DNA of 64,000 nt, from positions 11,204,001 to 11,268,000 of the forward strand of contig JAZHRO010000063.1 of assembly GCA_037157565.1 (NCBI GenBank), read 5' to 3'. Origin of the DNA: Thalassia testudinum (Eukaryota; Streptophyta; Magnoliopsida; Alismatales; Hydrocharitaceae). The translations under genes were made by a program, and so were the position numbers. Of the stretch, positions 4,261 to 46,190 are shown in pieces (positions within the stretch are counted from its first letter, which is position 1; every line of letters begins with the position of its first letter). The notes under the pieces were generated by a model. It was not told where the DNA came from. It did not search any database and saw only the letters and a list, made by a program, of their open reading frames with translations.

Positions 4261-5689
4261 ATGGATCCTTCCACATCCTACTTGCATTTTCACTCTTACC
4301 CTCCTACCACCACTTATTCCCAAGATGATTACTATGCCAACCCGACTTATGACCATCCATCCACCAATTGGGATAACTTTGATTGGGAATACAATTCTAG
4401 ACCTCAGTGTCTAGGACCTAACCCTGGACATCATGATTACGATTATTATCTTTCACAGAGCTATACTAGTTATAGAACTCCACCCTTTAATGATCAACCT
4501 AACCCAATCTACAATCAAGAAGGATATGTGGATTATAATCCCTACCCTCCTCAGGACTACATTGCATATAGGTCACCACCTTCCTTTGAACAACCTAAAA
4601 TGACCTATTATCAAGGAGGGCACCAGGAGCCTCAATTTCTTGACTCCCATGGATTGAACCCAAACCCACCCAACCCTTAATCAAACCATTTGGTTCAGGT
4701 GAACCAAGTCTAAGATAAGGTGTTGGCTAACTTAAGGAACACCATTCAATCTTTAGAAGCTCAGCTAACAGCCTACATTAAGGAATTGGAGCCTCGCATT
4801 CAAATGATTGATGATCTTAATAAGTATTTATTGGATTGGCTCCAAGATGTTGAGGATAAGGACCCGGGTGAGTTTTTACTTGGGAAATTGTCAAAATTGA
4901 AGATTAGATTTGCAATTACTCTAGTCCAATCTTGGGATGATTCCTATGATGAACCTCCTTCAGGAGAGCCAATATCAGAACCTACTCAGGCACCTATAGG
5001 GGGGATACATTTTACGAGACTGGGGATGACCAGGTTGGTCTAGAGCAACTAATTGAGGATGAATTGATTTCTTCACTTGAGATCCCTGAACTAGGGCATG
5101 AGGAAAACTATCTCTGTGGACCAACAACATATGATCTTGAGACATATATTAATGCAGATCTAGAATTCTTTAATTATGAAGGTGAAGAATCATTATGTGA
5201 AGTCTCACCTGAGTTTAAGGAAGATAATTTTAGTGAGATATACGAGCTTGAGGAGTAGGATGGATCATTCAATAGCCTAATAATTGAGGATTGTGATCCC
5301 ATCGAGGATAGCATGGAAGTTTCAGATCCTGTTTTCATGGATGATTCAATCAATAGCCCCATTCCTCAATCACACCCTAAAGAGATGAATGATGATGTTT
5401 TTGAAATCATTATACCCAAGTCAATTCTGATTGAGCCACAATTGTTAGACTCGGATATTGTATATGGGCTGTGTAATAACCTAGAGGTCCCGAGTAGGTC
5501 CCGAAAATCCTGATTGTGGAGGATAGGAATCTGAAAATGAAGATCTAGGAAGCCAATTCTAGGGGAAGTAGAATTCTTGATCTAAGGGCTCCTGTATACG
5601 TGAAATTACCGACTTTTTACTAGGATCCTTATGATCTTTTTGTGGATATGAAATCCAAGTGCATAATAATGGATTATCTTTTTGAGTAA
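4261..5689 (+). pseudogene. URF of element A, decayed (gag-less element protein)
   Basis: The start is the ATG at 4261 (MDPSTSYLHF), chosen because B begins alike (MNPSTYCTHC) just after the shared acceptor site. Residues 1-145 are rich in Tyr, Pro, Asn, Asp and Ser. A Leu/Ile heptad region (about residues 155-205, with ANLRNTIQSLEAQ) looks like a coiled coil and ends in LLDWLQDVEDK. The rest is strongly acidic, with SPEFKEDNFSE and similar. The frame holds stops at codons 140 and 151, shifts near the G-run at about 4999-5004, and has further stops before its probable end at 5689. It has no zinc knuckle, protease or polymerase motif. It aligns with the B URF over its whole length, so it is an inactivated copy. 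The function is unknown. Confidence 0.8.
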
Positions 5690-6537
5690 ACCGATAACTG
5701 GACAAACAAGCCCATTGATTTAGATCTATCTATTGTCTGACATTTCAGACTTGGGTTGCAAACCACTAAATCACAGGTCTAGCCCCACTTGCAAAATGAT
5801 CTCCGGTTCTAGGTAATTTTCATCTAGAACCTTAAAACCACTCGACCATGGGGCATGGTCAGCATCACAATCTCGTCCACATCTGTGGACATCTTCTCCT
5901 TGCAGGTGCTAAAATCGATCTTATTTTCATCTTGACTCATACCTGTGAATTCGTGATTTCTTCTTTATTTGTATAGTGTGCTTAGCTGAAGGCAGTAAAC
6001 TTAGCACGTATACAGTTTGTTTTCATCTCGGAGCTGACTTGTTAATCATGAAATTTAGGTGCTTTCTTCTCTACTCCTCTCCTTTTCATATCTTTTTAAT
6101 ACAATGAGGACAATGCATTAGATAGGCATGAGGGGGTGGATATCCTTATCTGAATTATTTTATTAACTCCGTAGATTCTTTTTATTTTCTCTTTACATAT
6201 GAAAAATAAAATTGAATTAGGAAAAGAGAACTTGAACATTAGAAATTTCTCAACTTTAGAAAATGATATAATAGGACCTAAACACTTAGATTCTTTAGGT
6301 CTTCAGGCTTAATAAGTCCAGGTGTCCACTAAAAAGTTGACTTGTTTCTTGAGTCCTCGCCATCTTTAATTTGTTTCTAATTGGTTAATAAGTTTAGGTG
6401 ATAAATACATGACTTATCAACCCACCCTCTGATTTAAGGAAACTTTAAGTTTAAAGCATTTGCACACTATTTGCACTGACCACTTTTTGGCAGTTTTAAC
6501 GGAAATTGTGTAGCTAATGAACTTTTTAGGGTAGTAT
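5690..6537 (+). other. 3' untranslated region of A, first part
   Basis: No gene is seen. The segment is collinear with B 12350-13073. Shared landmarks are a short hairpin (5875-5890), AGCTGAAGGCA followed by TAAACTTAGCAC, AATACAATGAGGACA followed by ATTAGATAGGCATG, and a GTCCTCGCC block. Confidence 0.7.
5875..5890 (+). repeat. Conserved hairpin after the URF (A)
   Basis: GTCCACA-TC-TGTGGAC is a perfect 7-bp inverted repeat. Element B keeps it as an 8-bp arm version at 12411-12428, at the same place after the ORF. Confidence 0.6.
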
Positions 6538-8034: not shown

Positions 8035-9666
8035 TGATGTAAACACATTTACACTACTTAAGATGTCTATTTATGCATGTTCTTAAGCATAGGATTACAT
8101 TGCATGCTATAAATAGTACATAACATGCATCATCTTGCATTTACATTAGTTTAAATAAAATGAAGGTTAATTGTCTCCTTTTATGTGCTTGGATAGGGCA
8201 AACCTTTTATCGGGACCTCGGATCGAAGATCCAACCATACATATGTGATCAGGGAGATGATTGGAGTTCAACGACTCCAAGATCGCCCTAATCAGGCATC
8301 TGTAGCATCAGATATTGACCGGGGAACCCTAGAAGACCAAGGGCCAAGATAGTGTAAATCCACACTTCAAACGATAAATTCGACTGCATGGATGGATTCA
8401 AATCGACGATCGCAGCCTAACGGGGTGAAAATCGACTCAATCCGACAACCGTGGCACCATCTACAGCATCCAGAAGGACGGCGCATCTCAGTCGTCCAAC
8501 CGGCCCCAAACACCGCCGCACCTTCTCTTCTTCAATTAGAGCGTTGCTTCTCCGCCATTGGATCAAGATCCAACGGCTGTGGATGCGATGCCTTGAAAAC
8601 GTCCGTGCGACCATTTGGACGATGCAGCACAGCGGTCCAGCGCCTTATCGTGAGGCGCTGTCACTGGATCGAGCCCCCGCGAGCTTCCAATCGCGATCCA
8701 ACGGCTACGCGCGCCCGATAGCACCCACGTGCTATTGCATGCGCGACGGTAACGTGGCATTGCACGCGGGCGGCGTGCGTTGAGGAGCGGGGAAGGTGCA
8801 TATTAAGCCGTCCGATCTCGCGATCGGAAAGCCGAGATTCAGCGGATGTGTGCAAGCGTTAAGCGCACGTGAAAGCCAGCAGCCGCGCGGGCAGTGCCCA
8901 CTACACCCACGATGGGGCTTTAGCGACGATTTTATCCATCACTAAAGACCCCTTATTTAATGTTTTGAGATTTAAATGACCAAATTTCCCTCACTCTTTG
9001 AAACTATAAAAGGAGACCCCCTCCACATGAAATTCTCATCCGTTCCTTCTCTTCTCTCCCTCTCCAAAGCTCAAGAGGAACTTGTCCCACACCCGGGATG
9101 CTTCTTGCGAGATAAGTCAAATTTTCATCCCCCTTCGGAAGTGGATCCCGTGACGACGACGACGTGCTGCCCCGTTCCCGTTCTTTTGCTTCGTCCGCCT
9201 TCATCCAGACGTCATCCCGTCCGGCTCGTCCTCCAAGCGACCGTCGAGGAGGATATTTCTCTCTCCATTATTTTAATACTTTTTAAAGTAAATGCACTGC
9301 TTTCTAGTGTAATTATTTTTGACTTTTTAGTTGTAATGATAAGTGAAACAAACAATCTCTTTAATGATGAATTCCATGTTCATTCTACATCTCATTTTGA
9401 TTTCTATTTGTAATATTCTCTCTCTCTTACTCTCTCTCTCTTCTATTTATTGTAAATAGTTAAAAAGTTTTAATCAATTGAATTACCTCGTGACAAATAA
9501 AATCAAACGCATAGTTTTTAAATCAAAGATTCGCCTCCCTGTGTTGTACCCGGAATTTCAATTTCGATATAAATTTTATTTATTAAACACGAGTTCTTCG
9601 ATTTCAAGCTACAACGACAAGGTTTTAAAACCAAACACGTTAGCGTAGCAATTCGTACGTCCAACA
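8035..9666 (+). repeat. 5' LTR of element B
   Basis: Starts TGATGTAAACAC and ends CGTACGTCCAACA, directly before the primer site. About 1632 bases. It contains a GC-rich U3 part (about 8440-8900), a TATA box at 9005 and an AT-rich end with the block CTCCCTGTGTTGTACCC. ORFs here on either strand reflect GC bias and are not supported as genes. Confidence 0.93.
9005..9012 (+). promoter_or_regulatory. TATA box of LTR B
   Basis: TATAAAAG is followed by GAGACCCCC and a C/T-rich stretch. The same box is at 14888-14895 in the 3' LTR. This is the likely promoter for the element RNA. Confidence 0.65.
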
Positions 9667-9669
9667 TTT

Positions 9670-9687
9670 TGGCGCCGTTGTCGGGGA
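9670..9687 (+). promoter_or_regulatory. Primer binding site of B (tRNA-Asp)
   Basis: TGGCGCCGTTGTCGGGGA lies three bases after the LTR. It matches the plant tRNA-Asp 3' end complement at 17 of 18 positions. Confidence 0.9.
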
Positions 9688-9770
9688 AGCGACGCTCTTT
9701 GATTTCTCTTCGCGTTTTCTAACTTACAAATCATTTACCTCACTTCTCTCATTTCTTATTGTGATTGCAG

Positions 9771-10821
9771 GTACTCTTTCAAGACAGGAAAAAGCGGTAG
9801 ATTGGAGTAAAGTGCTGTGGAAGATTTTTTAAGTTATCCCCCACATCCCACCTATTAGATTTCATTCCACAACATAATAACACAAACATCAATCAACCTA
9901 AGTGTTCTTATAAACTCTATGATTAGATTGTTTGTTGTTTGACATTCACACCTGGCCAAACTCCCACATTAAAAAAAAAAATTAAAATTAAAAAATCTCA
10001 CAGAGGTACACAACCTCATCTGATTTTCAAACTCAACCGGTAAACCAATCTTTGGAGCCGGTATATACATCCAAACACATAATTGAGTAGAAATCAGATT
10101 AGGTAATCACTTGTGTGCCTAATAAAGTGGTGCAACAGGCCGATTGTTTAAGTTGATTGGGTCGCACCACTTCAATTAAAATCAACTTATCAAGTAGCTG
10201 CCATTTAGGTTCAACTCTTAGGGATTTACCAGGCACTCCACATTCTTTTTAAGCTTTAAAGGAAAACAGCTTTACCTGTGCTTTCAAAAACCTAGTGTGC
10301 CAACAAAACCTATTTGAAAACACCTAAAGTTGAATCCTAAAAGCTACTAAGCAAGATTTGAATCCTAAAATTCACTGCATCGAAAATAATCTTACTTGAA
10401 AACCACTGGTTGTGCATGCACACACAAATCAATCAATCATTAAGGGCACAACCCATTTAAAGGGCCCATCACATTCCAAAGCACATTCAAACCTAGCCCT
10501 AAATAAAACAGAGTAGACGTTGGCGTTAAGGATTTGACTCACTCTTCAGAGCCCAGAACGAGATTATTTTCGATTAGTCTATTTCTACTGTTCAATCTGA
10601 CGTCTAGCTAGGGAGCAGAATCAAACGATCGCGGCTGGGGGGAACACTAGGAACCGGAGGCGCAAGCCGAAGGAAGAACCTTCTCCCCAATCCCTCCTAA
10701 CTGGTTGGATTGAATAGACAGAAGTAGATCAAATCGTTCCTTTATCTCAAGACGGGTTTTGGGAGTCTGTAGGTCTGTAGGCTAACCCACTTAAGGACAG
10801 GTTTGATTGATTGTATTGCAG
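9771..10821 (+). other. Putative leader intron of element B
   Basis: The donor-like GATTGCAG|GTACTC starts an intron at 9771, and the acceptor-like TTGTATTGCAG|G ends it at 10821, 25 bases before the URF ATG at 10847. Both positions match element A. Multiple short ATG ORFs in the unspliced leader would hinder translation of the URF, which fits removal by splicing. Inferred from sequence only. Confidence 0.45.
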
Positions 10822-10846
10822 GGCACCTTTCTTCCTTCCACTTATC

Positions 10847-12349
10847 ATGAATCCTTCCACATATTGCACGCATTGCCACTCTTTTCCTCCTGTTGTGAAT
10901 TATCCTCAACATAACGAATATCCTAACTCGTACTGTAATCAACCATCAGTTAGTTGGGATAACTCAGATTGGGGATACAGTTCTGGACCTCCGTGTTTAG
11001 GGTCTAACCCTGAACACTATGATTGCGATTTCTATCCTTCTTAAAGCCACATCGATTATATATCTTCAACCTTTCATGAACAACCTAGTACGATCTACAA
11101 TCAAGAAGGATACACTAATCCTTACCCATCCTCTGATTACACTGCCTTTAGGTCATCACCACCTTTTGAACAATCTGAAATGACCTATTATCAGGAAGGG
11201 TATAACGAATCTCAATTCGTTAATTCCCCTTCTTTGACCCCAAACCCACCCAATCCTGGACCAACTCATTTGGCTCAGGGTAACCAGGTTCAAGATAAGA
11301 TTCTGGCTAACTTGAGGAATATCATTCAATCTTTAGAAGTTCAACCAATACCTTGCATTGAGAGATTGGAGCCCCTGATTGAAATGATTGATAATTTGAA
11401 CAAGTCGTTGTTGGATTGGCTCTAGGATGTTAAGGATAAGAACCCGAGTGAGTTTCTACTTTGGAAATTAGGGAAATTGAGGATGAGATTCGTGGCCGCA
11501 TTAGTTCAGTCGTGGGATGATTCCCAGGATGAACTCCCTTCAGGAGAGCCAATGACAAAACCCGCTCAAGCACGTGTTGGGGGGGACACGTGTTACAGGG
11601 CTGACCAGATTAAATTAGAGCAACCAATTAAGGAAGATTTGATTTCTTCACTTGAGATCCTTGAGCCGGGGTACGAAGAAACGTATGTCTCCTTGGAACA
11701 GAAAGTGACAGATGATTTTGGGACATACATTGATATGGATCTTGATTTCTTTGATGGTGAAGATTCAAGTTGCGAAGTCTCACGTAAGTTTTCTGAACAC
11801 GATTTCTGTGAGACGATTGGGCATGAGGAATCTGAAAGATCATTTGATAGCCCAAGAACTGAGGAAACTGATCCTATTGGGGCACACATTACGGATCCAG
11901 AATCCCATTTTCTGGAGGATTCAATTCAATGCCCTGATTGTCAGTTACACCCCGTTGAGCTTATCGATGATTCTATTTCTAAGATAATTAGACCCAAGTC
12001 AATTCTAATTCAGCCACATCATTTAGACTTGGAGATTTCAGATGGGGTGATTAATATGCAAGAGGTCTCGGAATTTGACATACTGAATGAGGAGGACAGG
12101 AGTCGAGAAATTTTGATTTGGGAAGCTAACATTGGAGGAAGTACAAGACTGAGTCGAAGGGTGCCTATTAAGCTGAAACCATCAAACCAAGACCCTTACG
12201 ACATATGTTTTGGGGATGTCCAACCCAAGCACGCATTCAATGATTATTCTTTTGAGCTTCAATTCTCTGTAACCCAAATTTTTGGTCTTGGGTTGCATCC
12301 TCATAAATTGCAGGCCCGACCCTGCTTGCATACAGATTTTAGGTTTTGA
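10847..12349 (+). pseudogene. URF of element B, 500-codon frame with two stops
   Basis: One frame runs from ATG 10847 to the stop at 12349 and is broken only by TAA at codon 66 and TAG at codon 193. Layout: Tyr/Asn/Pro/Ser-rich N terminus (1-145); probable coiled coil (about 150-195, with LANLRNIIQSLEVQ); VAALVQSWDDS and PSGEP, which A also has (ITLVQSWDDS and PSGEP); then a long acidic half with repeated I/L-D/E-S clusters; a basic patch (LSRRVPIKLK) near residue 437; and a short C terminus. No enzyme motif, zinc knuckle, signal peptide or membrane segment is visible. By position and composition it could be a Gag-derived accessory protein. The function is unknown. The TAG at codon 193 replaces the CAA codon seen in A. 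Confidence 0.85.
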
Positions 12350-13073
12350 CTAATTTTATCCAGAACCTAAGATATTCTCGATTATAAGATATGGGTCTGC
12401 ACCACAATCTGGTCCACATCTGTGGACCTCTACTGACAGGTCGGAGGATTCTTCTATTTATTCTGATTCTGACCTGCACCTGTGAATTCTTCATTTCTCT
12501 TCTTTGTATAATGTGCCTAGCTGAAGGCACTAAACTTAGCACTTATACAGTTCTTTTTAGTTTCTATCTCGGAGCGGACCTGACATTCACGCAATTCAGG
12601 TGCTTTCTACGCTATTCCACTCTGTTTTATGTCTTTTTAATACAATGAGGACATTGCATTAGATAGGCATGGGGGGTGGATATTCATCTCTTAATTTATT
12701 TGTCAGCTCCGTAGATTTGTTTATTTTTATTAATAAAAAAAATTATGGAATTAGGAATGAAAACTTGGGTTTAAGAAAATTTTCAATCTTATGAAATACT
12801 ACATTATGATCTGAACACAAAGACCCTTCAGGTCTTTGGATTTAATTAGCCCGTGTATCCACTAAAATGTGGATTTGTTTTCGAGTCCTCGCCAACCTAA
12901 ATTCTATTTTAATTAGAGTAGATAAGTTTGGGTGATAAGTACACGACTTATCTACTCGCCCTCTGATTTGAGGAAATTTTTTAGTTTTAAGCATCTACAC
13001 ACTTTCTTTGCACTGACTCGTTCGGCGATTCTAACGGAAATTGGGTAGCTAATGAACCTTCTAAGGTGATATA
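12350..13073 (+). other. 3' untranslated region of B, first part
   Basis: Non-coding and collinear with A 5690-6537. Holds the hairpin at 12411-12428, AGCTGAAGGCAC followed by TAAACTTAGCAC, AATACAATGAGGACA and the GAGTCCTCGCC block. Confidence 0.7.
12411..12428 (+). repeat. Conserved hairpin after the URF (B)
   Basis: GGTCCACA-TC-TGTGGACC is a perfect 8-bp inverted repeat about 60 bases after the URF stop. Element A keeps it with 7-bp arms. Confidence 0.65.
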
Positions 13074-13856: not shown

Positions 13857-13875
13857 AAAGATAGGTATGGGGGTA
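13857..13875 (+). promoter_or_regulatory. Polypurine tract of B
   Basis: AAAGATAGGTATGGGGGTA lies directly before the 3' LTR. Near-identical tracts precede the 3' LTRs of A (17511), C (32616), E (60149) and, on minus, F (42611). It would prime plus-strand DNA synthesis. Confidence 0.8.
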
Positions 13876-23830: not shown

Positions 23831-23879
23831 CAAAAGTTATCCTACTTGATTCTATTAGCTCAATTAGACAACACAGGAC

Positions 23880-24608: not shown

Positions 24609-25486
24609 CACGTTTGATTGCACAAATTATTCAATCATTGACTAAGGTTCATAATAGACTATAGGACCCCTGGTGCACTTTAAATCTTGAAAATTTGAGA
24701 AACGTGCTTTAAATTCCTGGAAAAATATTTTTTCAGTGCCTACTTAGTGGTACAACATGACCAATTGATTGTATTATTTTGGTCACACCACATTTCTGAA
24801 TTTTGGACTTAAAAGAATCATCCTAGCAGCTATTCATTTCTAGGTTTTCAAACCTTAAGGTAGAGCACCTTTTGCATTGCATACTTCTAAAGGAAATCTA
24901 TCTCATAGATTGGGACTTGTAAAGAAACTCTTGTGTGCTCATCAAAACCTTACTTGAATTTATCTAACTATGAAACCCTAAAAACACATTTATACAAACA
25001 ATTGAACCTTAAAATTCACTTCATCATAAAAATTGCTTGTGAACCCCTTACCTGTGCACTTCACACTCTTGAAATCAATTTTAACGGCAACACCCTCTAA
25101 CGTCCATCAAATTCCAACAGCACTTCAAGTTGAAGCCTAAAATTGAGTAAACGTGCCCTAGATAAGACTAATTTTCTTGGTAACCTGAAGTTGATTGGGC
25201 CAAGATCAAGGCCTTATCTACTTGAACCAACTGGTGACAACAAAGGTTAGTGTGGTAACCGTGTTAACCCTTAGTGATGTCCCGCCGTGCGGGGTATCCT
25301 AGGGGGTTCCACCCTTCTGGAAAGCCAAGTAATTCAAGGATTAGTCTAACCTAATCGTATTTTGGGGAGCCAGGATTTGGTTTAATTAGGGTCTACATGC
25401 TAAGGACTAGTTTGATTGCTTGTATTATGAGGACAGTATTCTCTCATCTGTCTTCTCTCTGTCATCTATTAACTTTCCTCTAGTAT
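24609..25486 (+). other. Leader of non-autonomous element H
   Basis: No ORF of note. The segment matches the leaders of A and B: a tract with GACCAATTGATTG and GGTCACACCAC, then repeated CTTTAAAGG-type blocks and a TTTGATTGCTTGTATTATGAG site before the ORF. That site is the A/B acceptor TTG[C/T]AG changed to TATGAG. There is no LTR or primer site upstream. Confidence 0.65.
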
Positions 25487-25773: not shown

Positions 25774-25778
25774 CCTAC

Positions 25779-28344: not shown

Positions 28345-28349
28345 CCTAC

Positions 28350-29984
28350 CTCATCCTTACAAAATCCCACATGAATCTTAGGATATCAAGGATCTTTACA
28401 ATCTCAAGAGACACTCTCCATACAGGACCAACACCTAATCGGCATGAGCAACTAACTTGACCGATTCAACCAGACTCATCTCTCGCCTAGTTGGGGATAT
28501 GCCTCAGAGTCCCAATACCTAGGATATCAATCTTATCCCCGAAATCACTTTGCATATTATCTCAATTTTACCCAACCAACTACACCTTCTTATTGGGATG
28601 ACCCTACACCACCCAACCAAGGATATGATTCTTACCCTAGATATTCAAATCCTGATGATGATAGATATTCTGATTTGACTGAGGTTAGAAATCCTGAAAA
28701 TTATTATCCTCAGCCCACCCAAACCCTTGACCATGGCGGTGATCCCGAGGTTACCCAATCGCTCCAAATGATACAGGAGATGAGAGAATCTAATAAAAGA
28801 AACACTAAGAACATGTTGAAGGAGCTTAATAGAATCCAAGAAGCATAACTTGATAAACCTAGTCTGAGTGTGTCACAAGTTGGTGGTGAGCCACTCAGGG
28901 TTGAGGATCCGACCTTAAGTATGACATCTTATTCAGTCCCAACCTTTACTTCCACCGAGACCACCCACCAGTCCTGTGATTATCCAGAACATATCTTACT
29001 TAGGCTTACATCTGAACCAAAGGACAATTCTGATGCCCTAAAGACTGACTTTGAGGAGGAAGACTCATTCGAGAATCTAAACCTTGATTCAGGCCCTAAA
29101 TTACAATCATTTTATTTTGAGGAACAAATATCTAGTGGGCCTGAGTACGAATCCTTTATGCTAGAAGATGCATGATTGGACCATACGGATGATTTGGATT
29201 TGGATATCTTGGAAATTTTGGGAGAATCAAAACAAGATGAAAATTATAAAGAGCCCCCTCAAGAAGATAGAGGGATTGAGAATAATGACACTCCCAGCCA
29301 AGCACATTTGGATGATTCTGATATAATTTTGTCTAAGGATTATGATGATCGTATGTGCTTGGATGATTCAATTATGATATCTAAATTCAATGGTACTGAT
29401 CATTCTAAGATATTCCATATAGAAGCCTAATTTATTTTCACTTCTGTACCAACTGATTCTCCCCCTTCTCTTCCCATCCATTAAAGTCCTGAGGAAAACC
29501 CTGACTTTACATTCCCTCCTCCTGACTCTAATCCCCAACCTCTTGAGATTGAACAAAATAGACAATCACCCTATGAAAGAGATGTTCAAGAGATTACAAA
29601 ATTATTGGAGATGACTTATGATGATTTACCTGAGGAAGCAAAGAAGTCATCTAAATCGTGGAATTTCAAGGAAATTGATTTGATTTATGAGAAACAAGAA
29701 GATATTTCCTCAGAAGATATAGTTCAAGATAGAACCAATTGGGGTCAAATTTATAATCCTACTAATCATAATCGCTTGATTCTAAGAGAGACGAATTCTG
29801 ATGAGCATGAGATTATTTCTAATGATGAAGAGATAACATTTGATGAAGATTTTAGTGAATTCTACACAAAATTCCCAATCTCACAACCTTTCCCTTTAGC
29901 CTCATATGACCTAAGGACTGGAGAACTCATGATTTTTTATGTCAATCACCATTATGAAAATCCTTATAACTCAGACTCTGAAGC
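28350..29984 (+). pseudogene. URF of element H, main part
   Basis: From about 28486 to 29984 one frame is kept apart from stops (near 28846, 29173, 29428 and 29482). Tyr/Pro/Asn-rich sequence (YPRNHFAYYLNF, QGYDSYPRYSNPDDDRYSD) is followed by a coiled-coil stretch (MIQEMRESNKRNTKNMLKEL) and then a long acidic part with repeated D/E-D-S and LD-D-SI motifs. Layout and order match URFs A, B and F although primary similarity is low. The C terminus is replaced by the LTR at 29985; the last residues before the stop at 30018 are LTR sequence. Function unknown. Confidence 0.75.
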
Positions 29985-35266: not shown

Positions 35267-35851
35267 TGCTTTCAAACTTGGTTTGCCTCTCGAACATTTG
35301 GCTGAATATACCTAATACTTGAATCCTAAAAGCTACTAAGCAAGATCTGAATCCTAAAACTCACTTCATCCTCAATAATCTTGCTTGAAAACTTTTTGGT
35401 TGTGCACATACACACATTCTCAAATGAATCATTAAGGGCACAACCCATTAAGGGCCCATCACATTCGAGAAGCACCAATATCCCAAGCCTAACTAAAATT
35501 GATTAGACGTTGGCCTTAAGGATTAATTCACTCTTTGGGGCCCAGATTGAAATTGTTCTTGATTAACCTACTTATACTGATCAATCTGATGTCCAGCTAG
35601 GGGAGTAGCATCAAACGACCCCGGTTGGGGGTATCAAAAGAATCAAAGGTGCAAGCAAAAGGAAGACCCTTCTCCCTAGCCCCTCATTCTAACTAGTTGA
35701 ATTGACCGAATAAAAATAGAGTAAATAATTTATAATCTTAAGACAGATTCTGAAAGTGTGTAGATCTTTAGGCTACCCAACCTAAGGACAGGCTTGCAGT
35801 TTTTCTGTTGCAGGGTTCCTTTTTCCCATCCTTCCAACTTCCTTCCAGTGT
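35267..35851 (+). other. Leader of E with splice-acceptor-like site
   Basis: Collinear with A and B leaders (AATCCTAAAAGCTACTAAGCA, GGTTGTGCACATACAC, AAGGGCCCATCACATTC). It ends in TTTTTCTGTTGCAG|G (35813), 38 bases before the gag ATG at 35852. The donor lies in the missing part. Confidence 0.65.
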
Positions 35852-38560
35852 ATGCTTGGAAGGAGGTTATTGAACCCTTGCTTAGGACCTATACACCATT
35901 CCCAGAGGTGGAGGTTGACTTTTAGCCAACAGATCCCATGGTTGATCAATAATCACCTCCCTCGCCCCTGAACAAGCAGGAGCTGATTCAGAGGAGTTAG
36001 ACCAATTGCAGTAGATACAGCAATGGTTCCAACAAATGAATGGTCAGGGCGCTCATCCCTTGAAGGATTTTTATGATCCTTCGAATTATGAGGATCGACC
36101 CGGCGTTGTGATCCCCGTCAATGATGTTAAGATCAAGCCCTAGGTTTTGAGTTTAATTAAACACTTTCACGGGCTTGGCTCAGAGGATCCATTCCAACAT
36201 TTGGTGGACCTGATCACCCTGGTTTAGACCACCAAATCACGAAATGTGGATGAATAGATGCTCATGAAGCTTTTCCCCCATTCACTCAGGGATAAGGTCG
36301 TGCATTAGTATTGAACCATTAGAAGACTGATTGCTACTTGAACAGCTTTGAAATCAGCCTTCCTGAAGAAATTCTTCCCAATTGAGCGAACCAATGTGTT
36401 GCGACGGGCAATTACCACTTTTTCCCAACGGTAGGGGGAACTATTTCATGGGGCCTGGGAGCGATTCCAGGATCTATTGCAGAAGTGTCCACACCACGAG
36501 ATGCCTAAATGGCAACTTGTGCAGACTTTTTATCATAGGTTGAATGAACACCTACGTAATCATGTGGATGCTTCTTGCAGAGGCAATTTCCTCAACAAAG
36601 ACGCAAATAGCACGTATGATTTGTTTGAGGAAATGAGCGAAAACTCTTTAAACCATGCCTCCATGGAAACCTTCAACTGATCCCAACAAACTAGATCAAA
36701 TGCCAATGATGTCTAAGATTCTCATACATTTGATATGTTATTGATCTACAATAAATTAGATAACGTGGATCTGGTTGCTAAACGAATGGAAGAGTGGATG
36801 TCCGAAAACTCTAATTTTTCTAGATGCACTCAATCCCAGGGCTCGGGATTCTATTCTTCGCAAGCTCTTATGGGACGGGAGTTTGTGAACCAGCTGGAGT
36901 CGGCTCGACCTTCGAACCAGCTCTTCTCGGAACCTTATGGGTTTCAAACTACGGCCTTTGATCCTAATTTTTCTGATCCTTCTTCATCCTCATCTTATGT
37001 GGATGTTCATGCTGTACAAGAGAATATTAGCTCCAACCCTTACTCGAATTCCTACAATCCTGGTTGCAAAAATCACCCTAACTTCTCTTGAAAAGATCAG
37101 GGGCGGTAGACCCAATATTGACCCAACAATTATGTACCGCAAAAACCAATGGGACAGGGTCATGTATACACTCATTTGCCCCCGAATCAGGTTAAGAAAT
37201 TCATGTGGAATGCTCAACAACCCACCGGGTAAGCTAATTTAAACCTGAAGATGGTAGAAATGCAAGGGTTAATGCTCCAGCTCATGCAACAAATGAAAAC
37301 ATTACTGGACACCTTGCAATCCGGACTTAGTGCAAACAACTGACAACTCAAATCTCTACCATCCAAACCGATACCAAATCCAAGGAATGTACAGAGCTGA
37401 GTCATTGGGCCTTAAGGGTTTGGTAATGGTGGGAAGCTGCATGCTCAAGCTCATGCTATCTATTAGGCTACCCCAGCCCCTCCCGGAGCGAACCAAGTTC
37501 CTGATGGCCTAACTTAGTAGATTAGGTGCCATCTGGCTATACCGATGTTTCCGCACTAATCTTTACATCTGGGTATACCATGATGTACTCACTCGGGATG
37601 CATCTTCTCCTTATTTACAAGATCCCGCATATCAGGATCCCGTAAACAATCCAGTTTTGGCACCTTACGACCAGGGTTACGCACCACCCACAGATTATAA
37701 CACGTATCCCCTTTACGGATATACATCTCAGACATCTTCGGCCTACGAGGATGTCAGTGCTATCCAAGGATACGGGTGTAATAACACATATTCAGAGACG
37801 TATAACCCTGGTTGCTGCCAGCATCCGAACTTCTACTGGTCTGGTAATTCACAAAAACCACATCAAGATCCACACTATCAAACCAGGCAATACGAGAATG
37901 CGAAAAGCACGTACCCTAGGCAGCAGCCATTCCTGCATCAATAGCAACCCCATTCTTTATACCAGCTACTGCACCAAGCTGCCAGTCACCCTCCAAAGCG
38001 GGCTAACCCTTTAGAGGCAATGAAAGAGGAGCTGCAAGAATCGATGAGGAAATCTACACAAGATAGCTTGCAGATTATGAAGGCGATGGCTGACCAAATA
38101 CAGACTATACAGAACACACAAAACCAGCTATTGCAGGAGCATAGAACTCAAGAAGCCTTGCCCTTCCAACCCGTCCCGAACCCCTGATATGTGCAGAACC
38201 AAGATGCCCCGCCTAAGTTTCGGGCACCGCAAGAACAGGCACACGCCATACTACAGGCGCCTCCTGCACCACCTGGTTACGCGAAAGGCCAGCCACCTTT
38301 ACAGAACCCCGCATATTCTACCCCTTCCGCTCCCCCACCACCTCATGGACAGTAAGCCAATGCACATGCTGTCTCTTTGAGGAGCAGAAGGAAGACATTC
38401 GACCCACCACATAGGTAGGCGGGTCCTGATTTTTCCCACACTTCGCCGCAGGCAGGTTCGACTCCATCTCAAGAGCCACCTGCGATAGATAAGAGTAAGA
38501 GGCCACTTGACCCTGAGATTCCCGTCCCTTTTCCTAAGGCTCTAACACAGAATGCAATAC
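35852..38560 (+). pseudogene. gag: Athila-type Gag of E, with a duplicated C-terminal module
   Basis: The start ATGCTTGGAAGG matches that of D. The capsid region reads LKDFYDPSNYEDRPGVVIP, LGSEDPFQHLVDL, LFPHSLRDKV, LFHGAWERFQDLLQKCPHHE and MPKWQLVQTFYHRL. Many TAG and TGA stops and at least one frameshift break it. After the capsid there are two similar modules. One has NPYSNSYNPGCKNHPNFS (about 37035-37090) and a coiled coil (MVEMQGLMLQLMQQMKTLL). The other has NTYSETYNPGCCQHPNFYW (about 37785-37845), a Tyr/Pro/Gln-rich stretch and a coiled coil (IMKAMADQIQTIQNTQNQLL). No intact zinc knuckle is seen. The region ends with SLRSRRKTFDPP, the counterpart of ILRSGKE. Capsid assembly is the family role. 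Confidence 0.85.
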
Positions 38561-39170
38561 ACTAAAAGGACACGAAATTTTGAGGATCTGAAATCGATGT
38601 TCAAGGAAGTACATATTTAGGTTCCCCTCCTCGAGGCAATTGATCACATTCCCGCTGTCGCTAGGTTCTTCAAGGACTATTGTACCCCGAAGCAACAGCC
38701 GAGAATTGGACAGGCGATACTGTCGAAAGAGGCTAGCGCCGTGATTCTAGTTGACTTACCGTCAAAAAAGAAAGACCCTAGTACCCCACTCATATCCTGC
38801 TTCTTGTAGGATTCTCCATTTGATCGGGTCCTTTTAGATCTAGGTTCATCCATCAACCTAACTCCCATTATCGTATTTGATCGATTTCGATTTGGGGAGT
38901 TGAAGCCCACCTCTGTCACGAGTCAGTTGGCTGATAGATCAGTCAAAACACCGAGAGGGGTGGTTGAGAACGTGACAGTGAAAGGCCGCAGGTTCTGCTT
39001 TCCCGCAGACTTTTTCGTTCTCAATATGGAAGTTCCTCCTAATCTCCGAGATGCACCAATTATTTTGGGTCACCCATTTCTAGCGACAGCACGAGCGAAC
39101 ATTGATTGTGCATCCGGGTGTATGGAGATAGCCCTAGGTAATGAGCGACTTCGACTTGACATATTCAGGG
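38561..39170 (+). pseudogene. pro: Retropepsin-like protease of E
   Basis: LLEAIDHIP and FFKDYCTPK lead into FDRVLLDLGSSINLTP, the aspartic protease site (DLGSS, Asp codon near 38836), then SVKTPRGVVENVTVKG and APIILGHPFLATARANIDC. This is the Athila protease order. A TAG near 38809 breaks it. The 3' half is open in a frame from 38900 that also leads into the reverse transcriptase. It would cut Gag and Gag-Pol. Confidence 0.85.
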
Positions 39171-40622
39171 CAGCAAAGAACTTCGACTGTGATCGAATAG
39201 AGGAGGATGGTGAAGACAAAGATGTGGCATACTGTGCTAACATTGGGCTCCTCTGTGACAACCCAATGTCTCATTCGTCTACACTATTATGGTTCTTGGA
39301 CCTCGATCCACACGGGACTGAGACCACTGCACTACACATATCTCCCCGAGGATCTGACTGTTTAGGGTGTGCTTCTGACCATAGCACCCCTGAATCTAGC
39401 TATCCTTATCCACACACTACTGAATCGCCCCTGTTGCAGGAAGACATGACCACAGCTAACGGGTTTCCTGTTAACGCAGCCACAACTGATTATCTCACAG
39501 GAAGCGACTCGGCGGGAATTCACGTGCATAAGGATCAGCAGATTCCCACCCTCGATTCTGCACCACCCACCCCCATTTCTAACTCTGACCCACCCATGAT
39601 TGAATTGAAGCCCTTACCTAACTCACTTAAGTATGTGTTCTTGGGTGAAAGTGAGACATACCCAGTCATTATTAATGCTCACTTAACTCAAGAACAGGAG
39701 CATCAGTTGATTTCTACACTACAAGATCATAGGACTGCTATCGGGTGGAGTATTGCTGATCTCCGCAGTATTCACCCCTCGTATTGCACTCATCATATTT
39801 ACACAGTTGAAGGGGTGAAACCTTTGAGACAACCTCAAAGACGGCTTAACCCGAATATGCTAGAGGTTGTTAAGAAGGAAATATCAAATGGCTGGATGCA
39901 GGTATTGTATACCCAATCTCAGACAGCCAATAGGTGAGTCCGATCTAGATAGTGCCCAAGAAAGCAGGACTCATCGTCGTAAAAAATGATAAGGGTGAAT
40001 CCATCCCGACCTGCATTGCGACATCTTGGCGGGTCCGCATCGACTATAGGAAACTGAACACGGCTACCCAGAAGGATCACTTTCCTTTGCATTTCATTGA
40101 TCGGATCTTGAACGATTAGCCGAACGCAGTTTCTTTTGCTTTCTAGATGGATACTCCGAGTATAATCAAGTAGCGATTAGCCCAGAAGATCAAGACAAGA
40201 CCACATTCACATGCCCCTTTGGAACATTCGCTTTCAAGCGGATGCCCTTTGGCCTCTGCAACGCACCAGCGACATTTCAGCGTTGTATGATGGCCATCTT
40301 CTCTGACAAGATTGGGGACTATGTGGAGGTATTAATGGATGACTTCTCCGTTTTCGGAGATGATTTCGCATCTTGTCTTGATAACCTCACCAAGATCCTG
40401 AAACGGTGTATTGAGGTAAACCTAGTACTATCCCGAGAGAAAAGCCACTTCATGGTGAGGGATGGCATAATACTGGGACACAGGATCTCCAAAAATGGAC
40501 TCGAGGTCGATCAAGCTAAATCTGAGATTATTTCCCACTTACCACCACCTAGCTCGGTCAAGCATATCAAATCATTCTTGGGTCACATCAGCTTCTATCG
40601 AAGATTTATACGCGATTTCTAG
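39171..40622 (+). pseudogene. pol: Reverse transcriptase of E
   Basis: After a linker rich in Ser/Pro/Thr, the RT begins IELKPLPNSLKYVFLG and GWSIADLRSIHPSYCTHHI. A frameshift near 39890 is followed by VYPISDSQ, VPKKAGLIVVKNDKGE and WRVRIDYRKLNTATQKDHFP. A second shift comes before FGTFAFKRMPFGLCNAPATF. The catalytic block reads YVEVLMDDFSVFGD; the two Asp of the (F/Y)xDD motif are present (near 40337). GHRISKNGLEVDQAK and HIKSFLGHISFYRRFIRDF mark the thumb and end. Stops such as TAG at about 40118 and 40147 inactivate it. This is a Ty3/gypsy Athila-type RT. Confidence 0.9.
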
Positions 40623-40758
40623 CAAATTACACGACCTTTGACGAATCTCCTGATTGCCTATGTCCCATTTGAATTCGACACCTCGTGTCTCAACGCCTTC
40701 AAGCCTTTACGAAGTGTTGTCTCTGACTCCCCGATTCTCCAACCACCCGACTAGTCGC
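40623..40758 (+). pseudogene. pol: RNase H of E, part 1
   Basis: Reads ITRPLTNLLIAYVPFEFD, then SPILQPPD followed by TAG where Trp (W) is usual. It breaks at 40758, where antisense element F begins. The frame resumes at 49274. Confidence 0.85.
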
Positions 40759-42610
40759 TGACGGATCGATTTTCACTTTGAATAATTAATATTAAGATAA
40801 TAAATCGTTGCAGTACAAAAGGTGGTGGAAAATCTCTCAATCAAAGATTAAATAGATATGAATTTAAACCACAATAACGGATGTCGTGTCCACAAGGAGG
40901 AATAGACCAATAAATTCATGATAAATTTTCCTCTTGTTTACTTAAAAGTAATTTTATTCATTCATCTGAATCCCAAAGAAAGAACACTAATAGATGAACA
41001 AAATAACCAATTTCTGAAAAAATATGGACCAATCACGTAAATTCCCCTTTACTAGAATACTCCTATAAAATAAATCAACCCCAAAATATTCAATGGCATC
41101 CAATGTAAAACATAATATCACCATTTAATGCAAAGCTAATAGATGGGGGAAGATAATCATGCAATTTGATAGGCCAATTAATTGGAGTAAACTAAAGGGG
41201 CTTGGCTTTATATTCATTCAATTAATAAAATAATAAATCAAAAATCAAGTTTTGGCAATGGCAGCAAATGTAATAACTATTGAAGTCAAAAAGAGCATTT
41301 GCTCTCTCTCCTCATCGCGAGAGAGAGAGAGCACCGGCGGGGCTGTTAACCGCAAGGGAGGTTGGCAAAAACGAGGCCGATCCGATGGAGGTTGCAGCGT
41401 CAACGGAGATGGCCGGAGGTGGCCGGTCGATGGAGGAGAACCGCCTGTCTGTTAGAGGAGCCTGTGGGGCAACGCTAGCAATGAAGGGCGCACAGCAGAT
41501 GGCGCACACCTGCGGGTGCCGCAGGAGGGTGCGAGGATGAGGGCAGTGCAGCGCCTTCAGTGAAGGGCGCTGGCAGAGCGCTTGCGATGCGGCTGGAGCA
41601 AGCGCTGGACACCTGCGGGAGACGGGTGTTGGCGTGCGGTTGCAAAGGCGGGCGCTAGAGAAGGGCGCGCTTGCGGGAGCGGGCAAGGTGGAGCGGGCGC
41701 CTGGTGGTGTGCCTGAAGGCGGTGGAGGCTGAGGCGCGCGTCTGCAGGTGCGCAAGGTGAAGGTGTAGGCACCTGCAGGTGGCTAGTGCAGTCTGCAGAG
41801 GGGAAGCGCTACGGGTGTGAAGGCAGGTGCTGGTGCGGTGCTTGCGGTGCTTGGCAGTGGCACGGCTGAGCGGAGCGACTATGCAGCACCTGCGGGTGCT
41901 GGCCTGGCAGTGGAGAAGGCGCGGCTGGAGGATGAAGGCGGGCGGACGCCTGCAGGCGTGAAGGCGTGTAGTGCCTGCGGGCGCGGCTGGAGGTGGGCAC
42001 TGGACGATGTGCGCCTGCAGGAGGGGGGCACTATGGTGTGCTCGGCCTGGCAGGGGCACGCAAGGTGGAGTGGCGCGGTTGCGTGAGCGCGTGCAGGCGT
42101 TGGGCGTGAGGCAGACTCGTGCAGTGATTTGAGAGGCGGCTGGAGATGGGCGATGGAAGGTAGGATGCGGTGATGGCACTGGAAGGGAGGATGGGGTGCA
42201 CAGTGCACGCGATGAAGTAGTTCCCCGCAGGGGGGAAGATGCAGATGCCCCTCTCCTTTCTCCGCCACCTCTTTAACTCCTCTCCTTTGCGCGTGCGTAA
42301 GTTAAGGGATTTTCAAATCCCTTAGCTATTTCTGGCCGGCGACTGTTGAGGGTGCCCGAAGGATGGGGAAAAGAATTGCCACCGGTTGTTTGAAAGGGTA
42401 ATTTACCCTCCCCTCCTTATTCTTTTACCAAATATTTTTCCTCCACATAAAAAGAACATAAAATCATTACATATTAAGTTATAGAATAGATGTAAACCTA
42501 AATCATGATGCATGCAAACATTCTATAACTTAATGTAGTTATTGATAAACCTAAAAGATACAATTAAAGTTACTTAGGCATAATATTAGTCCATTAAAAT
42601 GGACTCTTCA
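40759..42610 (-). repeat. 3' LTR of F (minus)
   Basis: 1852 bases, plus-strand limits TGACGGATCG and GGACTCTTCA. Highly similar to 47426-49273. AT-rich ends surround a GC-rich core (about 41330-42300) with many CACCTGC/GCAGGTG boxes. Long Ala/Pro/Arg ORFs in the core are present in both LTRs but look like composition effects. Confidence 0.92.
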
Positions 42611-42629
42611 AATACCCTCATGCCTAAGA
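42611..42629 (-). promoter_or_regulatory. Polypurine tract of F
   Basis: On minus it reads CTTAGGCATGAGGGTATT, directly before the 3' LTR start TGAAGAGTCC. It is close to TAGGCATGGGGGT of A. It would prime plus-strand synthesis. Confidence 0.7.
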
Positions 42630-44192
42630 TTTACTAGTCCCTAGCAAAAATAAAAAATAATAGAAGTAATCAGAAGATTTCTTCTTTTCTTACTTCAAAA
42701 CTTTAGAAATCCAGACAAATGTGAAGTGCTGATAGCCTTGGTAACAGATCCAAGTGAAAAAGCCAATTCATATTGGGAGTTCGTACTTCACCCTTGGTAA
42801 ATATTTCTGCTGGGATAGGCAACTACTTCCCTCGGGGATAAAGCAGACGATAATCTGTAATTTGACCACGGCGTTTGGCTTAGGTAGGAGATATCGAGTT
42901 GAATGGATTTGTATTTTGTGGCACACACTCATCTGGTGCTACATGTAGTCTAGTACTACAGACTCTAGATCTCTAGACTATTAGACAAGTCAACTCTGAG
43001 AGAGGCTACACAATTGTGCTCTCTTGATGTTCCTGGGCACTCCCTCTTTTCTTTCTTTCCGAGATCACGAATCTCGCCAGATTTACAAATTGTACTCACT
43101 ATTTGGTGGCCTCACATGGCATCCACACTTCAATTAAAGTCCTAATAACACTACAACTAAGTTAGAGTCCTCAACCAGTATTCGGGCGATCAGAAATACT
43201 AAAAGGTAGGTATGGGTCATATTTGGTGGAACACGATAGGTGTTCTAATGCCTCGGAAATAATGTTACATTATAACTTGGACCTTTTTTTTTCTTTTTTC
43301 TTTGTAATATAAATATTTCTTCTTTTTCTGTTTCTTCTTTTTCTTCTTTTCTATTCTTTTTTTCTTTTTATAATATAGATCAACATAATATGACACAGAC
43401 TTTTATTTATGAGGCATTATTCGGGATGATGATGGTTAAGAGGATATTGTGTGGCTTATTTGGTAGAAGTGTCTATTCTCGACACCGGGAAGGAATGGAT
43501 AAGACAGGCATATTTCTGACCTTTGACACTATTACCCTCCTTCAGCCGAGGACTTTATGAAGGACGATCGTAACCATCCACCATAATTATAGCTTTATTA
43601 AGACTCAATCTCTGTGTATCTATCTTATTTAGTGACTCTCAGAAATTCACACAAAGTACGCATACAAGAATAGAGAGTGAAAACTATGCCTAACTCTGAA
43701 GTATCATCTAATTATCCAAAACTTAAGAGTCCTTGAACTAGACTTAACGCACCAGTAATCTCTCTACTTTCTTCTCACAAATATGAGGTGGATCTACTGG
43801 AAGATAGTATGCCTGACTCCCTATGAACTGTCCAAGGGTTTAGTGGACTACAAATGCTTATTGATTTTCCTCAAGGATCCATTACCAAGTCTACGTGTAT
43901 GTGAAATAAATGTACTGGATTTTAATCTTAAGAAATAATTCCGGAAGAAAAACCTCCAATGACAAATTTATTTTGCTAGGGCTAACCCAATCAGCACAAG
44001 AAAAGAGTTTTTTTTTCATATATGCTAACCTAAATGCATGAATACTTCCTAACATGCAAATGCACTCCCCCATGCCTAAATCCTACAATGTCCCCATTGT
44101 AAAATTAAAACAGGAGGAGAAAGGAAAAACATCACCTGACACTGTGTTATTCTAACCGCTGGGTTGCCTCCTAACAAGCACTGCATTTTCTG
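42630..44192 (-). other. 3' untranslated region of F
   Basis: No gene. On minus it holds TAGGAGGCAACCCAGCGG just after the URF, a long A/G-rich tract (plus 43285-43375 as T/C-rich), and CCACCAAATA boxes (plus complements at 43100-43109 and 43220-43229, and a variant at about 43457). Element E has the same boxes in its 3' region. Confidence 0.65.
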
Positions 44193-46190
44193 TCAGCAGC
44201 CAAACATAGAAGGAACCTGTAAGTCTGGTTCCAAACAGACAAAGTTAGGCCCAAAAAATATGCATAACAGTGCAGGCCTAGAAAACAGGTAGCCACGAAT
44301 GTTGACGAGCTGATGATGCAACGTAATACCAAATGCTCGCCAGAAGACATGAAAGCAAAGAACCTCGTTGGCTATCTTGGGAGGTCTAAGAATAATAAAC
44401 GGAATATGAAAAGAGACCTCCCGAAATGGAATAAGTGGAGGATAACAAGGATCCTCCAGAGCAGGACGGGTTTTAAAAGATACAAACATTATTAGTTCAA
44501 ACCCTTAAATGGCGAAAGTAAAAGTACAAGCATCAATCCACACTCGCCATTCTACCCGAGGATGTACTGGCCTAATATGTTCTCTAGAAACGATGTACAT
44601 GAGCAGAGATTTGAGCCAAGGATCGGTAAGGGAGTATAAGGGTTGTTTGTAGTGTTGGAAGGTAATGGTTAAGTCCAATGAGGGCTTAGTCGGTGTTAGA
44701 TCTAATTCCAACAATGATTCAGATTGTGCATACTCCCAAACAGTTGTAGACAGCTGCATATTACCCTGCCTAGCATTAATGATTAGAGCCATATTTGAAT
44801 CAAGGGTTGACTCCAAATTACAACTCTTTGATGACAGGGTCAAAATGTCAGAATCATTATCATTCAACTCATCCCCAGATTCGTTTGGTTCAATAAAATT
44901 TTTGTCGGGGTGTATATGTGATTCATTAATGAAGACAGGAGTTGAATCAGTATCCTTAATTATGTCTAAAGGAGAATCAGTCTTAATATTTTGGAGCAAG
45001 CCTATATCATTGAATTCGTTATTATTGTCGGGGTATAAATCCTCAATTGACATGTTTAGTCCCCAAGAGTCTCCCAAAGACTTCTCATTATTTTGTTTGT
45101 CTTCCTCTAATATCAACTCCTGTTTTGATGGAGGATAGCCCTCAAAAGAAAAGAAGAATCTGGATTTAATCATATTATTTCCATCCTCTGGAGGTAAATC
45201 CTCAAATGATGAATAATTCCCCTGTGGTTCACTCCAGATTTTCAGTCCAAGTTCCTCTATTAGGGTATCCCCATCCTCTGAAATAGACTCTTCATATCCC
45301 TGTGACCAAAATTGATCTAATTCATCCTCCATTCCCTTAGGGTCACCTTCATTAGGTGCATTTAAATCCTCAGGATATTGAATGGTAGGTGTTAATTCCC
45401 TAAGTGGAGGGTTATGGGTTGGCTCACTAAGGGTAGAATGGGATTCCACCAAATAATCAATAGGGGAAGTGATAGGAACAATACAACCTTGACCCGGGTT
45501 GGTAGGGGTAAGGAGAATACTATCATTGGGGTCAAGGTCCTCAAGAGGTATCATCTTCCCTTGCTTTTGACTCCAATACAGTTCAGGTGGATAATCACTA
45601 TAATCGTTGTCCTCTAGTGGACGTGTCTCATTAGGAGAGTCTAAGTGATAATTACATAAAATTGGATCCCTAATGTCAATAGATTCCTCAGAATTATTTT
45701 CATGATCATGATCGGATGGGTAGGAATCAGGATTATTGGGAAGCGTGTAGCTAAGTTATCATATTTCTTTATTTAACCGTTGACTATTCCTCAACATCTC
45801 ACCCATTGATTCCATCACTTCCTTTTGCTGTTTTTGCATTTCTATCATAAAAGAGGAGAGGCTACCATTATCAGGTTGGGGAAGATAGTCAATTTCAGGC
45901 TCTGGTTGCCTAAGGGTATCAGTCCAACCTCGATAAGGAAAATCATGAAGGGTGGGAGGGTTGGGTGTTTGCATGGAAATAGGGATTTCAGGGTTGGAAA
46001 ATCCCGCTCTTAGGCTCTACTTAAAAGTAGGAGTTATCAAGTCAGTACTCCCAGGATAAGAAAAAGAATGGTCCCATGAATTGTCAATGTACCCAGCAAA
46101 GGATGGATACGCTCGGGGCAGGGGATCCTGATTAAAAGATGGGAAGTATTGACTCTAATAATCTAAATGATAGGAGTAAGGGTAATCCAT
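44193..46190 (-). pseudogene. URF of element F, one frame with five stops
   Basis: On minus one frame runs from ATG 46190 (MDYPYSYHLDY) to TGA 44193, 666 codons. Internal stops are at codons 12 and 58, a pair at 144-145 (45761-45756), and TAA at 44507-44505. The clean middle piece (45554-44505) is 349 codons. Layout: Tyr/Pro/Ser-rich N terminus, a coiled-coil stretch (FMIEMQKQQKEVMESMGEML), a very acidic body (EDLPPEDGNN, SIEDLYPDNNNEFND, ESGDELNDNDSDIL), and a C-terminal hydrophobic/aromatic part after the TAA (FREVSFHIPFIILRPPKIAN). It has no enzyme motif. The order matches URFs A, B and H. Function unknown. Confidence 0.8.

What the first reader, a model, noticed from the sequence alone, without database searches (positions are those of the whole stretch)
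4261..46190. A family of gag-less element proteins (URF) with one shared layout in four elements
Elements A (4261-5689), B (10847-12349), H (25487-29984) and F (46190-44193, minus) each have one long frame where gag-pol should be. The proteins differ in sequence but keep the same order: a Tyr/Pro/Asn/Ser-rich N terminus, a coiled coil, then a long acidic body. No enzyme, zinc-knuckle or capsid motif is seen. The first two parts resemble the C-terminal part of the E Gag (Tyr/Pro-rich, then coiled coil, 37657-38160). The URF may descend from a Gag that lost its capsid domain and gained an acidic extension. A protein kept by several non-autonomous families suggests selection, perhaps for packaging or for use of a partner particle. 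Seen: layout and frames. Inferred: origin and role.
Basis: partly seen in the sequence, partly recalled or inferred. Interest (0 to 1): 0.75.

Follow-up and report, generated by a model that had tools for sequence, protein, structure and literature searches.

The report
Gag-less retrotransposons sharing one protein tail
Several abundant plant jumping genes have lost their usual replication genes but keep one strange protein, whose end piece is the same in three otherwise different families, which suggests that the protein does something useful for elements that borrow their machinery.

Summary
The URFs are real. A and B are one family, so the four elements make three families (A/B, F, H). They are gag-less, pol-less Athila-type (Ty3/gypsy) LTR elements with thousands of first-look candidate copies in a 4.26-Gb plant genome. 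The layout (Tyr/Pro/Asn/Ser-rich start, helical or coiled-coil part, acidic body) is confirmed in composition, but the copies are broken. Front ends and bodies of different families show no similarity beyond composition. This tail (GLHHQLVHICG plus a hydrophobic stretch) is homologous in all three families with local composition controlled (at most 1 of 300 permutations). In A versus B the front end and tail are under purifying selection, the acidic body is not; the H tail is also low; F is inconclusive. Descent from a Gag that lost its capsid is not supported. Closest precedent: wheat RLG_Sabrina variants in which gag-pro is replaced by unique ORFs. New here: a conserved tail uniting several such families.

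The parts
1240..3028 (+). A, 5' LTR (part aligned to its partner 17748-19347)
   Evidence: K2P 0.157 over 929 aligned sites of 2099-3028 vs 18402-19347
3029..3046 (+). A, primer binding site, 2 mismatches to the recalled Athila tRNA-Asp pattern
   Evidence: 0 expected by chance in shuffles
3047..4260 (+). A, leader; 3683-4233 is 76% identical to the leader of E
4261..6107 (+). A, URF (broken: frame change near 4950, several stops) including the tail; tail block at 5863; end approximate, by alignment to B
8036..9666 (+). B, 5' LTR (partner 13877-15563)
   Evidence: K2P 0.101
9670..9687 (+). B, primer binding site (1 mismatch)
9688..10846 (+). B, leader; 10315-10839 is 77% identical to the leader of E
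10847..11563 (+). B, URF front end (Tyr/Pro/Asn/Ser-rich part and helical part); dN/dS versus A 0.34
11564..12346 (+). B, URF acidic body, no measurable constraint
12347..12648 (+).
12649..12678 (+). B, internal polypurine-like motif GAGGACAT..TAGGCATGGGGGG
24609..25486 (+). H, leader, truncated and joined at about 24609 to a Gag-PR remnant that other copies lack
25487..29984 (+). H, URF, interrupted by an insertion (about 25.77-28.34 kb) and cut at about 29985; its tail is seen only in other copies
44217..46190 (-). F, URF including the tail (44507-44217; block at 44321); coiled-coil part 45869-45762; body 45755-44508
44066..44094 (-). F, internal polypurine-like motif
47405..47422 (-). F, primer binding site (2 mismatches)
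47426..49274 (-). F, 5' LTR (partner 40759-42611)
   Evidence: K2P 0.096
35274..60033 (+). E, Gag-Pol element holding F and a LINE: leader 35274-35822, Gag about 36015-38184, RNase H 51134-51619, integrase about 51994-52689, motif 58376, 3' region 58858-60033 shared with F
   Evidence: protease and RT by reading only

Best explanation
A/B, F and H are three high-copy families of gag-less, pol-less Athila-type LTR retrotransposons, probably moved in trans by Gag-Pol elements of the E type, with which they share leader or 3' regions. Each encodes one protein of roughly 600-660 codons in the place of gag-pol. The protein is modular: a Tyr/Pro/Asn-rich start with a helical or coiled-coil segment, a fast-changing acidic spacer, and a C-terminal tail of about 100 residues (GLHHQLVHICG plus a hydrophobic stretch) that is homologous in all three families; so the URFs share descent, at least in their C-terminal part. 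Most likely mechanism (inference): the protein self-associates through its front end and docks through its tail on the partner's particle or on a membrane, and so helps its own RNA to be packaged or delivered. Shown: architecture, shared flanks, shared tail in frame, selection on front end and tail in A/B and on the tail in H. Inferred: trans-mobilisation, the partner, and the molecular role (about 0.3 on its own).
For: Shared tail: B~H 0/300, H~F 0/300, B~F at most 1/300 under three kinds of permutation, with B~F bodies as negative control not significant (47-60 of 150); 23 of 29 H copies exceed all 300 nulls against B tails, 11 of 29 against F tails; B~F 0/200. Tail is in the URF frame: stops before it are private (B codon 12347 TGG in 7 of 7 others; F codon 44507 not a stop in 29 of 29 others) with common end stops. 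Selection: A vs 7 B copies front 0.34 (off-frames 0.67, 0.62) and tail 0.29 (0.86, 0.85), neutral simulation 0 of 600 and 0.1% of 1000; H tail 0.55 against 0.93 and 0.92. Partnership: PBS of one type in A, B, F and a PBS-like site in one H copy; A/B leader 76-77% identical to E's, E-F 3' regions 68%, F leader similar to the Gag element upstream of H; 2 of 4 H copies tested share the E/F 3' region. No gag in one H copy from a PBS-like site to the leader.
Against: Front ends are not similar between families beyond local composition. F shows no clear selection: within 30 F copies the real frame is no better than control frames (odds ratio 1.29; controls up to 2.39; front end 0.79, controls up to 5.5), and against four P0001-like copies the tail is 0.53 with an off-frame at 0.54. 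H body in frame 0.73 is higher than off-frames 0.50 and 0.62. Some stops recur in several copies (B up to 9 of 28, F 11 of 30), by recurrent C-to-T decay or inheritance from stop-bearing sources. The seven B copies are not independent of each other in the comparison with A. No direct evidence of transposition, expression or protein.
Confidence: 0.62

Rival explanations
1. Mosaic origin: the families share flanks and the C-terminal tail through recombination, while front ends and bodies were acquired independently, as with the unique ORFs of wheat Sabrina variants; the common layout is convergent composition.
For: No front-end or body similarity beyond local composition between families; flanks are shared in a mosaic way; in wheat, GAG-Pro was replaced by several unrelated coding segments (PMC9744471, section read).
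Against: Same order of parts in all three families, and bodies evolve too fast to keep similarity. B~H and F~H front ends are low under full permutation (3/150 and 0/150) though not under the local one (14/150 and 38/150).
Confidence: 0.25
2. Gag remnant: the URF is a Gag that lost capsid and zinc knuckle and kept the Tyr/Pro-rich part and coiled coil.
For: Similar composition; the Gag upstream of H versus H front end 1/150 and versus B 4/150 with local composition kept.
Against: The YNPG..NHPNF block is absent; E Gag versus URFs not significant under the local null (21-137 of 150); the conserved tail has no counterpart in the E segments tested.
Confidence: 0.12
3. Env-like protein: the URF is a diverged env-like ORF left alone after loss of gag and pol; coiled coil plus hydrophobic tail would be the membrane-active part.
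For: The best 19-residue hydrophobicity of the tail averages 2.40 in B, 1.63 in F and 1.88 in H copies, transmembrane-like in B; plant env-like ORFs often have such segments and splicing (PMC7264820, section 4 read); A, B and E leaders end in a splice-acceptor-like TGCAG (by eye). Arabidopsis Athila families keep gag plus env without pol (PMC2410132, parts 1-2 of 6 read).
Against: No Pfam match, no hydrophobic N-terminus by eye, and no env sequence was compared. The order Gag-PR-URF at H, which would place the URF in the env position, is a junction absent from the two other copies read.
Confidence: 0.12
4. No protein function: the URF is a decaying passenger frame, and the tail is conserved as RNA or DNA near the 3' end.
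For: F within-family test negative; bodies neutral-like; DNA after the URF is conserved between B and F as well (score 27 against a maximum of 18 in 500 shuffles).
Against: Frame-specific low dN/dS in A/B front end and tail and H tail; tail in the URF frame in all three families with common end stops.
Confidence: 0.1

Closest known systems
Wheat RLG_Sabrina_NA2-NA8, non-autonomous variants of an Athila-clade family (PMC9744471, section 2.7 read; clade from PMC5738225 passages)
   Same: Non-autonomous, high-copy; GAG-Pro replaced by other coding segments; part of a system with an autonomous partner (RLG_Wilma).
   Different: There the replacing proteins are short, four of them without homology to other wheat proteins and two capsid-like in predicted structure. 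Here about 600-660 codons with a tail shared by three families, and dN/dS measured. Sequence kinship with Sabrina was not tested.
Arabidopsis Athila non-autonomous families with gag or gag plus env (PMC2410132, parts 1-2 of 6 read)
   Same: Athila lineage, pol lost, remaining ORFs under purifying selection (omega mostly about 0.2-0.4 in the paper's table).
   Different: They keep gag; the elements here have no gag.
RLG_Quinta, partner of RLG_Cereba in einkorn wheat (PMC11302176, passages read)
   Same: Autonomous/non-autonomous pair with shared PBS and LTR parts; the non-autonomous partner encodes a domain of unknown function (DUF1).
   Different: Quinta keeps GAG and belongs to a centromeric lineage.
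Additional ORFs and env-like ORFs of plant LTR elements (PMC7264820, passages and section 4 read)
   Same: Extra element protein of unclear function; hydrophobic segments in env-like ones.
   Different: Those accompany gag-pol; here the ORF stands in their place.

Membership tests
Athila-type LTR element | PBS complementary to tRNA-Asp (pattern recalled) | tested here: met
   A, B, F with 1-2 mismatches; one H copy with a PBS-like site, 3 differences by eye
Athila-type LTR element | RT phylogeny within the Athila clade | not testable with these tools
   the URF elements have no RT; E's RT was not placed in a tree
Athila-type LTR element | kinship of flanks with a Gag-Pol element of the lineage | tested here: met
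   leaders and 3' regions shared with E; E has RNase H above and integrase and Gag below the Pfam cut-off; that E is Athila rests on recalled sequence features
Non-autonomous LTR element with gag-pol replaced (Sabrina_NA kind) | no gag, pro or pol; another long ORF in their place; many copies | tested here: met
   40 scored copies for each of three queries among 8832, 5643 and 2035 first-look candidates
Non-autonomous LTR element with gag-pol replaced (Sabrina_NA kind) | sequence kinship with Sabrina | not tested
   no wheat sequence was at hand
Gag remnant | capsid or zinc-knuckle match | tested here: not met
   no Pfam match above cut-off in 12 URF pieces; the same scan finds Retrotrans_gag in 22450-23022 (6.5e-10)
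Gag remnant | YNPG..NHPNF block of the Gag C-terminus | tested here: not met
Env-like protein | transmembrane segment | tested here: inconclusive
   hydrophobicity only: 2.40, 1.63, 1.88
Env-like protein | place downstream of pol | tested here: not met
   A, B, F have no pol upstream; the Gag-PR upstream of H is absent from two other copies read

The most novel reading that the evidence does not exclude
The URF is a further kind of retrotransposon protein, neither Gag, Pol nor Env: a selected, modular accessory protein with its own conserved C-terminal domain, carried by thousands of gag-less elements in one plant genome and acting in a division of labour with a Gag-Pol partner.
Probability: 0.4. 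Interest if true: 0.7.

Novelty: new variant of a known kind. Interest (0 to 1): 0.52.

Why it matters
Non-autonomous retrotransposons are usually seen as parasites that need no protein of their own. A protein kept in several gag-less families, with selection focused on its two ends and a shared tail, would mean that such elements contribute something, for themselves or for their partner. The tail is a precise handle for finding the same protein in other plant genomes and for testing what it does.

Tried and rejected
Led nowhere: relatives of F, B and a Gag piece in viral contigs (no confirmed hit); relatives of the H C-terminal piece in the protein database (none at E <= 1); NCBIfam for five proteins (one sub-threshold hit) and PDB sequences for P0004 (none); AlphaFold2 models of F and B bodies (mean pLDDT 34 and 40), too poor for a fold search, which I did not run; two compound paper searches (no paper).

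Considered and rejected: four independent URFs (A and B are one family); H as a Gag-PR-URF element (the junction at about 24609 is absent from the two other copies read); NG86 dN/dS at face value (neutral expectation here is about 0.66, so 0.42 for A versus B is only modestly low and 0.60-0.63 for the acidic part is neutral); the single-pair tail match (2-9 of 2000 shuffles at default gap cost, 1-26 of 2000 at a laxer one, 2-6 of 500 against whole F) was weak and was settled only with many copies. In one search, 10 of 29 H tails, 6 of 7 B tails and 29 of 29 F tails passed filters, and at most 8 of a set were compared.
Full report
WHAT THE WINDOW IS. Its content is nested LTR elements and a LINE-like stretch, and Rfam finds a plant snoRNA, so it is plant DNA. 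Element B (LTRs 8036-9666 and 13877-15563) sits inside A (LTR parts 1240-3028 and 17748-19347). F (minus strand, LTRs 40759-42611 and 47426-49274) sits inside E. In E, Pfam finds RNase H above its cut-off (5e-17) and integrase core (5e-6) and Gag (9e-4) below theirs; protease and RT are by reading and recall, without a Pfam match. LTR distances (K2P) are 0.157 for A, 0.101 for B and 0.096 for F. A, B and F carry a PBS within 1-2 mismatches of the Athila tRNA-Asp pattern, which I recalled (0 expected in shuffles).

CHECK OF THE OBSERVATION. The layout is there in composition: N-terminal parts 40-49% Y+P+N+S, bodies 19-24% D+E, against 2-9% D+E in the other five frames of the B, F and H bodies. 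No Pfam family reaches its cut-off in 12 URF pieces. But A and B are one family, the window copies carry 2 to 8 in-frame stops, A changes frame, and H is split by a 2.6-kb insertion that 20 of 29 other copies demonstrably lack and cut at about 29985. Among 128 pairwise comparisons of pieces the A-B pairs stood out, then the B body end versus the stretch after the F stop (0/200); others were at 2 of 200 or weaker.

THE MISSED TAIL. At B 12347 all 7 other copies examined have TGG; 4 of 7 have no stop before a common TGA at 12646, 2 of 7 have one earlier stop and share it, one has several. At F 44507 the TAA occurs only in F; of 29 other copies 27 have CAA, 1 CTA and 1 CAT; a common stop follows at 44219 (23 of 30) and another at 44195 (29 of 29 ungapped). 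The added stretch holds GLHHNLVHICGPLLTG in B and ITLHHQLVNIRGYLFS in F. In H, whose tail is cut off in the window, 10 of 29 other copies show the block by motif, and 23 of 29 exceed the maximum of 300 shuffled-DNA nulls against B tails, 11 of 29 against F tails. With permutations that keep relatedness, and two of three settings local composition, B~H and H~F give 0/300 each time and B~F 1/300, 0/300 and 0/300; B and F bodies as negative control give 47-60 of 150. In H the block lies in the URF frame. Three E segments show no tail.

SELECTION. A against B by NG86 gives 0.42 (bootstrap 0.31-0.55), but neutral simulation with the same transition bias gives 0.66 +/- 0.10, and off-frame or non-coding comparisons of A and B give 0.56-0.85, so only differences from these count. 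A against 7 B-family copies: front end 0.34 (off-frames 0.67, 0.62), acidic body 0.79 (0.76, 0.79), tail 0.29 (0.86, 0.85). Simulations reach 0.34 in 0 of 600 for the front end and 0.29 in 0.1% of 1000 for the tail; the seven copies are not independent. H family: body 0.73 in frame, off-frames 0.50 and 0.62; tail 0.55 in frame, off-frames 0.93 and 0.92 (24 tails; pairs with dS 0.2-0.6). F against four P0001-like copies: tail 0.53 (0.54, 0.94), body 0.57 (0.71, 0.82), inconclusive. Within the B family (28 copies) shared variants are enriched for synonymous changes over singletons in the real frame of the front end (odds ratio 3.3; controls up to 2.1); the body is not above its controls (1.8; controls up to 2.5). 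Within the F family (30 copies) nothing is seen (1.3, controls up to 2.4; front end 0.8, controls up to 5.5). Singletons in B are even over codon positions (185, 179, 179), as expected of dead copies. Some stops recur in several copies (up to 9 of 28 in B, 11 of 30 in F).

PARTNERSHIP. A/B leaders are 76-77% identical to E's leader. Between A and B the leader (K2P 0.24) is less diverged than URF synonymous sites (dS 0.42-0.71), as expected of a cis-acting region. F shares about 1.2 kb of 3' region with E and 235 bp of leader with the Gag element upstream of H; 2 of 4 H copies tested share the 3' region of E and F. The motif GAGGACAT..TAGGCATGGGGG follows the coding part in B, E and F, and a similar motif precedes the 3' LTR in A, B and F. 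The Gag-PR just upstream of H is not part of H: one other copy matches the window only from 24609 on; another has a PBS-like site, and its best match to the window's Gag and PR pieces is at chance level (E 0.084).

ORIGIN. Front ends of the three families are not similar beyond local composition (B~F 37, B~H 14, F~H 38 of 150 as high; with full permutation 22, 3 and 0 of 150), nor to Gag C-termini except the marginal upstream Gag versus H (1/150) and versus B (4/150). The Gag signature block is absent. Loss of the capsid from Gag is not shown. The tail proves kinship; whether front ends share descent or were exchanged stays open.

RELATIVES. Protein searches found three relatives of F (69, 74, 81% identity) and one of B (72%), all on JGI contigs of 1.0-1.3 kb; H found none. 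P0001's best scored match in this genome is 85% (144 of 18982 candidates scored), so it may come from another plant.

LITERATURE. Seen: PMC9744471 passages and section 2.7, PMC2410132 parts 1-2 of 6, passages of PMC5738225, PMC11302176, PMC11963269 and PMC7264820, section 4 of PMC7264820. In the listings I saw no description of a tail shared between gag-less families; the library lacks most subscription journals and cannot be searched by sequence, so this says little.

JUDGEMENT. Not an artefact and not a new kind of element, but a new variant: several gag-less Athila-type families with one modular protein whose conserved parts are the front end (shown in A/B) and a shared tail. The molecular role is inference.

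Noticed in passing
36717-37340 and 37513-38184: The Gag of E reads as if its C-terminal module (YNPG..HPNF block, then coiled coil) were present twice.
   Followed up: no
22505-22613, minus strand: Rfam plant snoR71 match (49.3 bits, cut-off 40) antisense inside the capsid part of the Gag frame upstream of H.
   Followed up: no
12649-12678, 13863-13873, 17517-17527: The polypurine-like motif occurs twice per element, once after the coding part and once in front of the 3' LTR.
   Followed up: partly
H family copies, for example G000:C9:62328974-62330095: About 20 of the 40 scored H copies match in two pieces about 215 bp apart, so one subfamily has an extra segment of about 72 codons in the acidic body.
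   Followed up: no
24578-24730: Junction of a Gag-PR remnant with the H leader, without LTR between; not seen in the two other H copies read. A deletion or recombination between two elements.
   Followed up: partly
237-1176, 16064-16961, 27545-28351, 30516-33505, 63488-63998: A related repeat recurs in both orientations and abuts or interrupts elements A and H.
   Followed up: no
3047-4260 and 9688-10846: Leaders end in splice-acceptor-like sequence (TTGATTGCTTGTACTGCAG in A); they may be introns or packaging signals (by eye).
   Followed up: no
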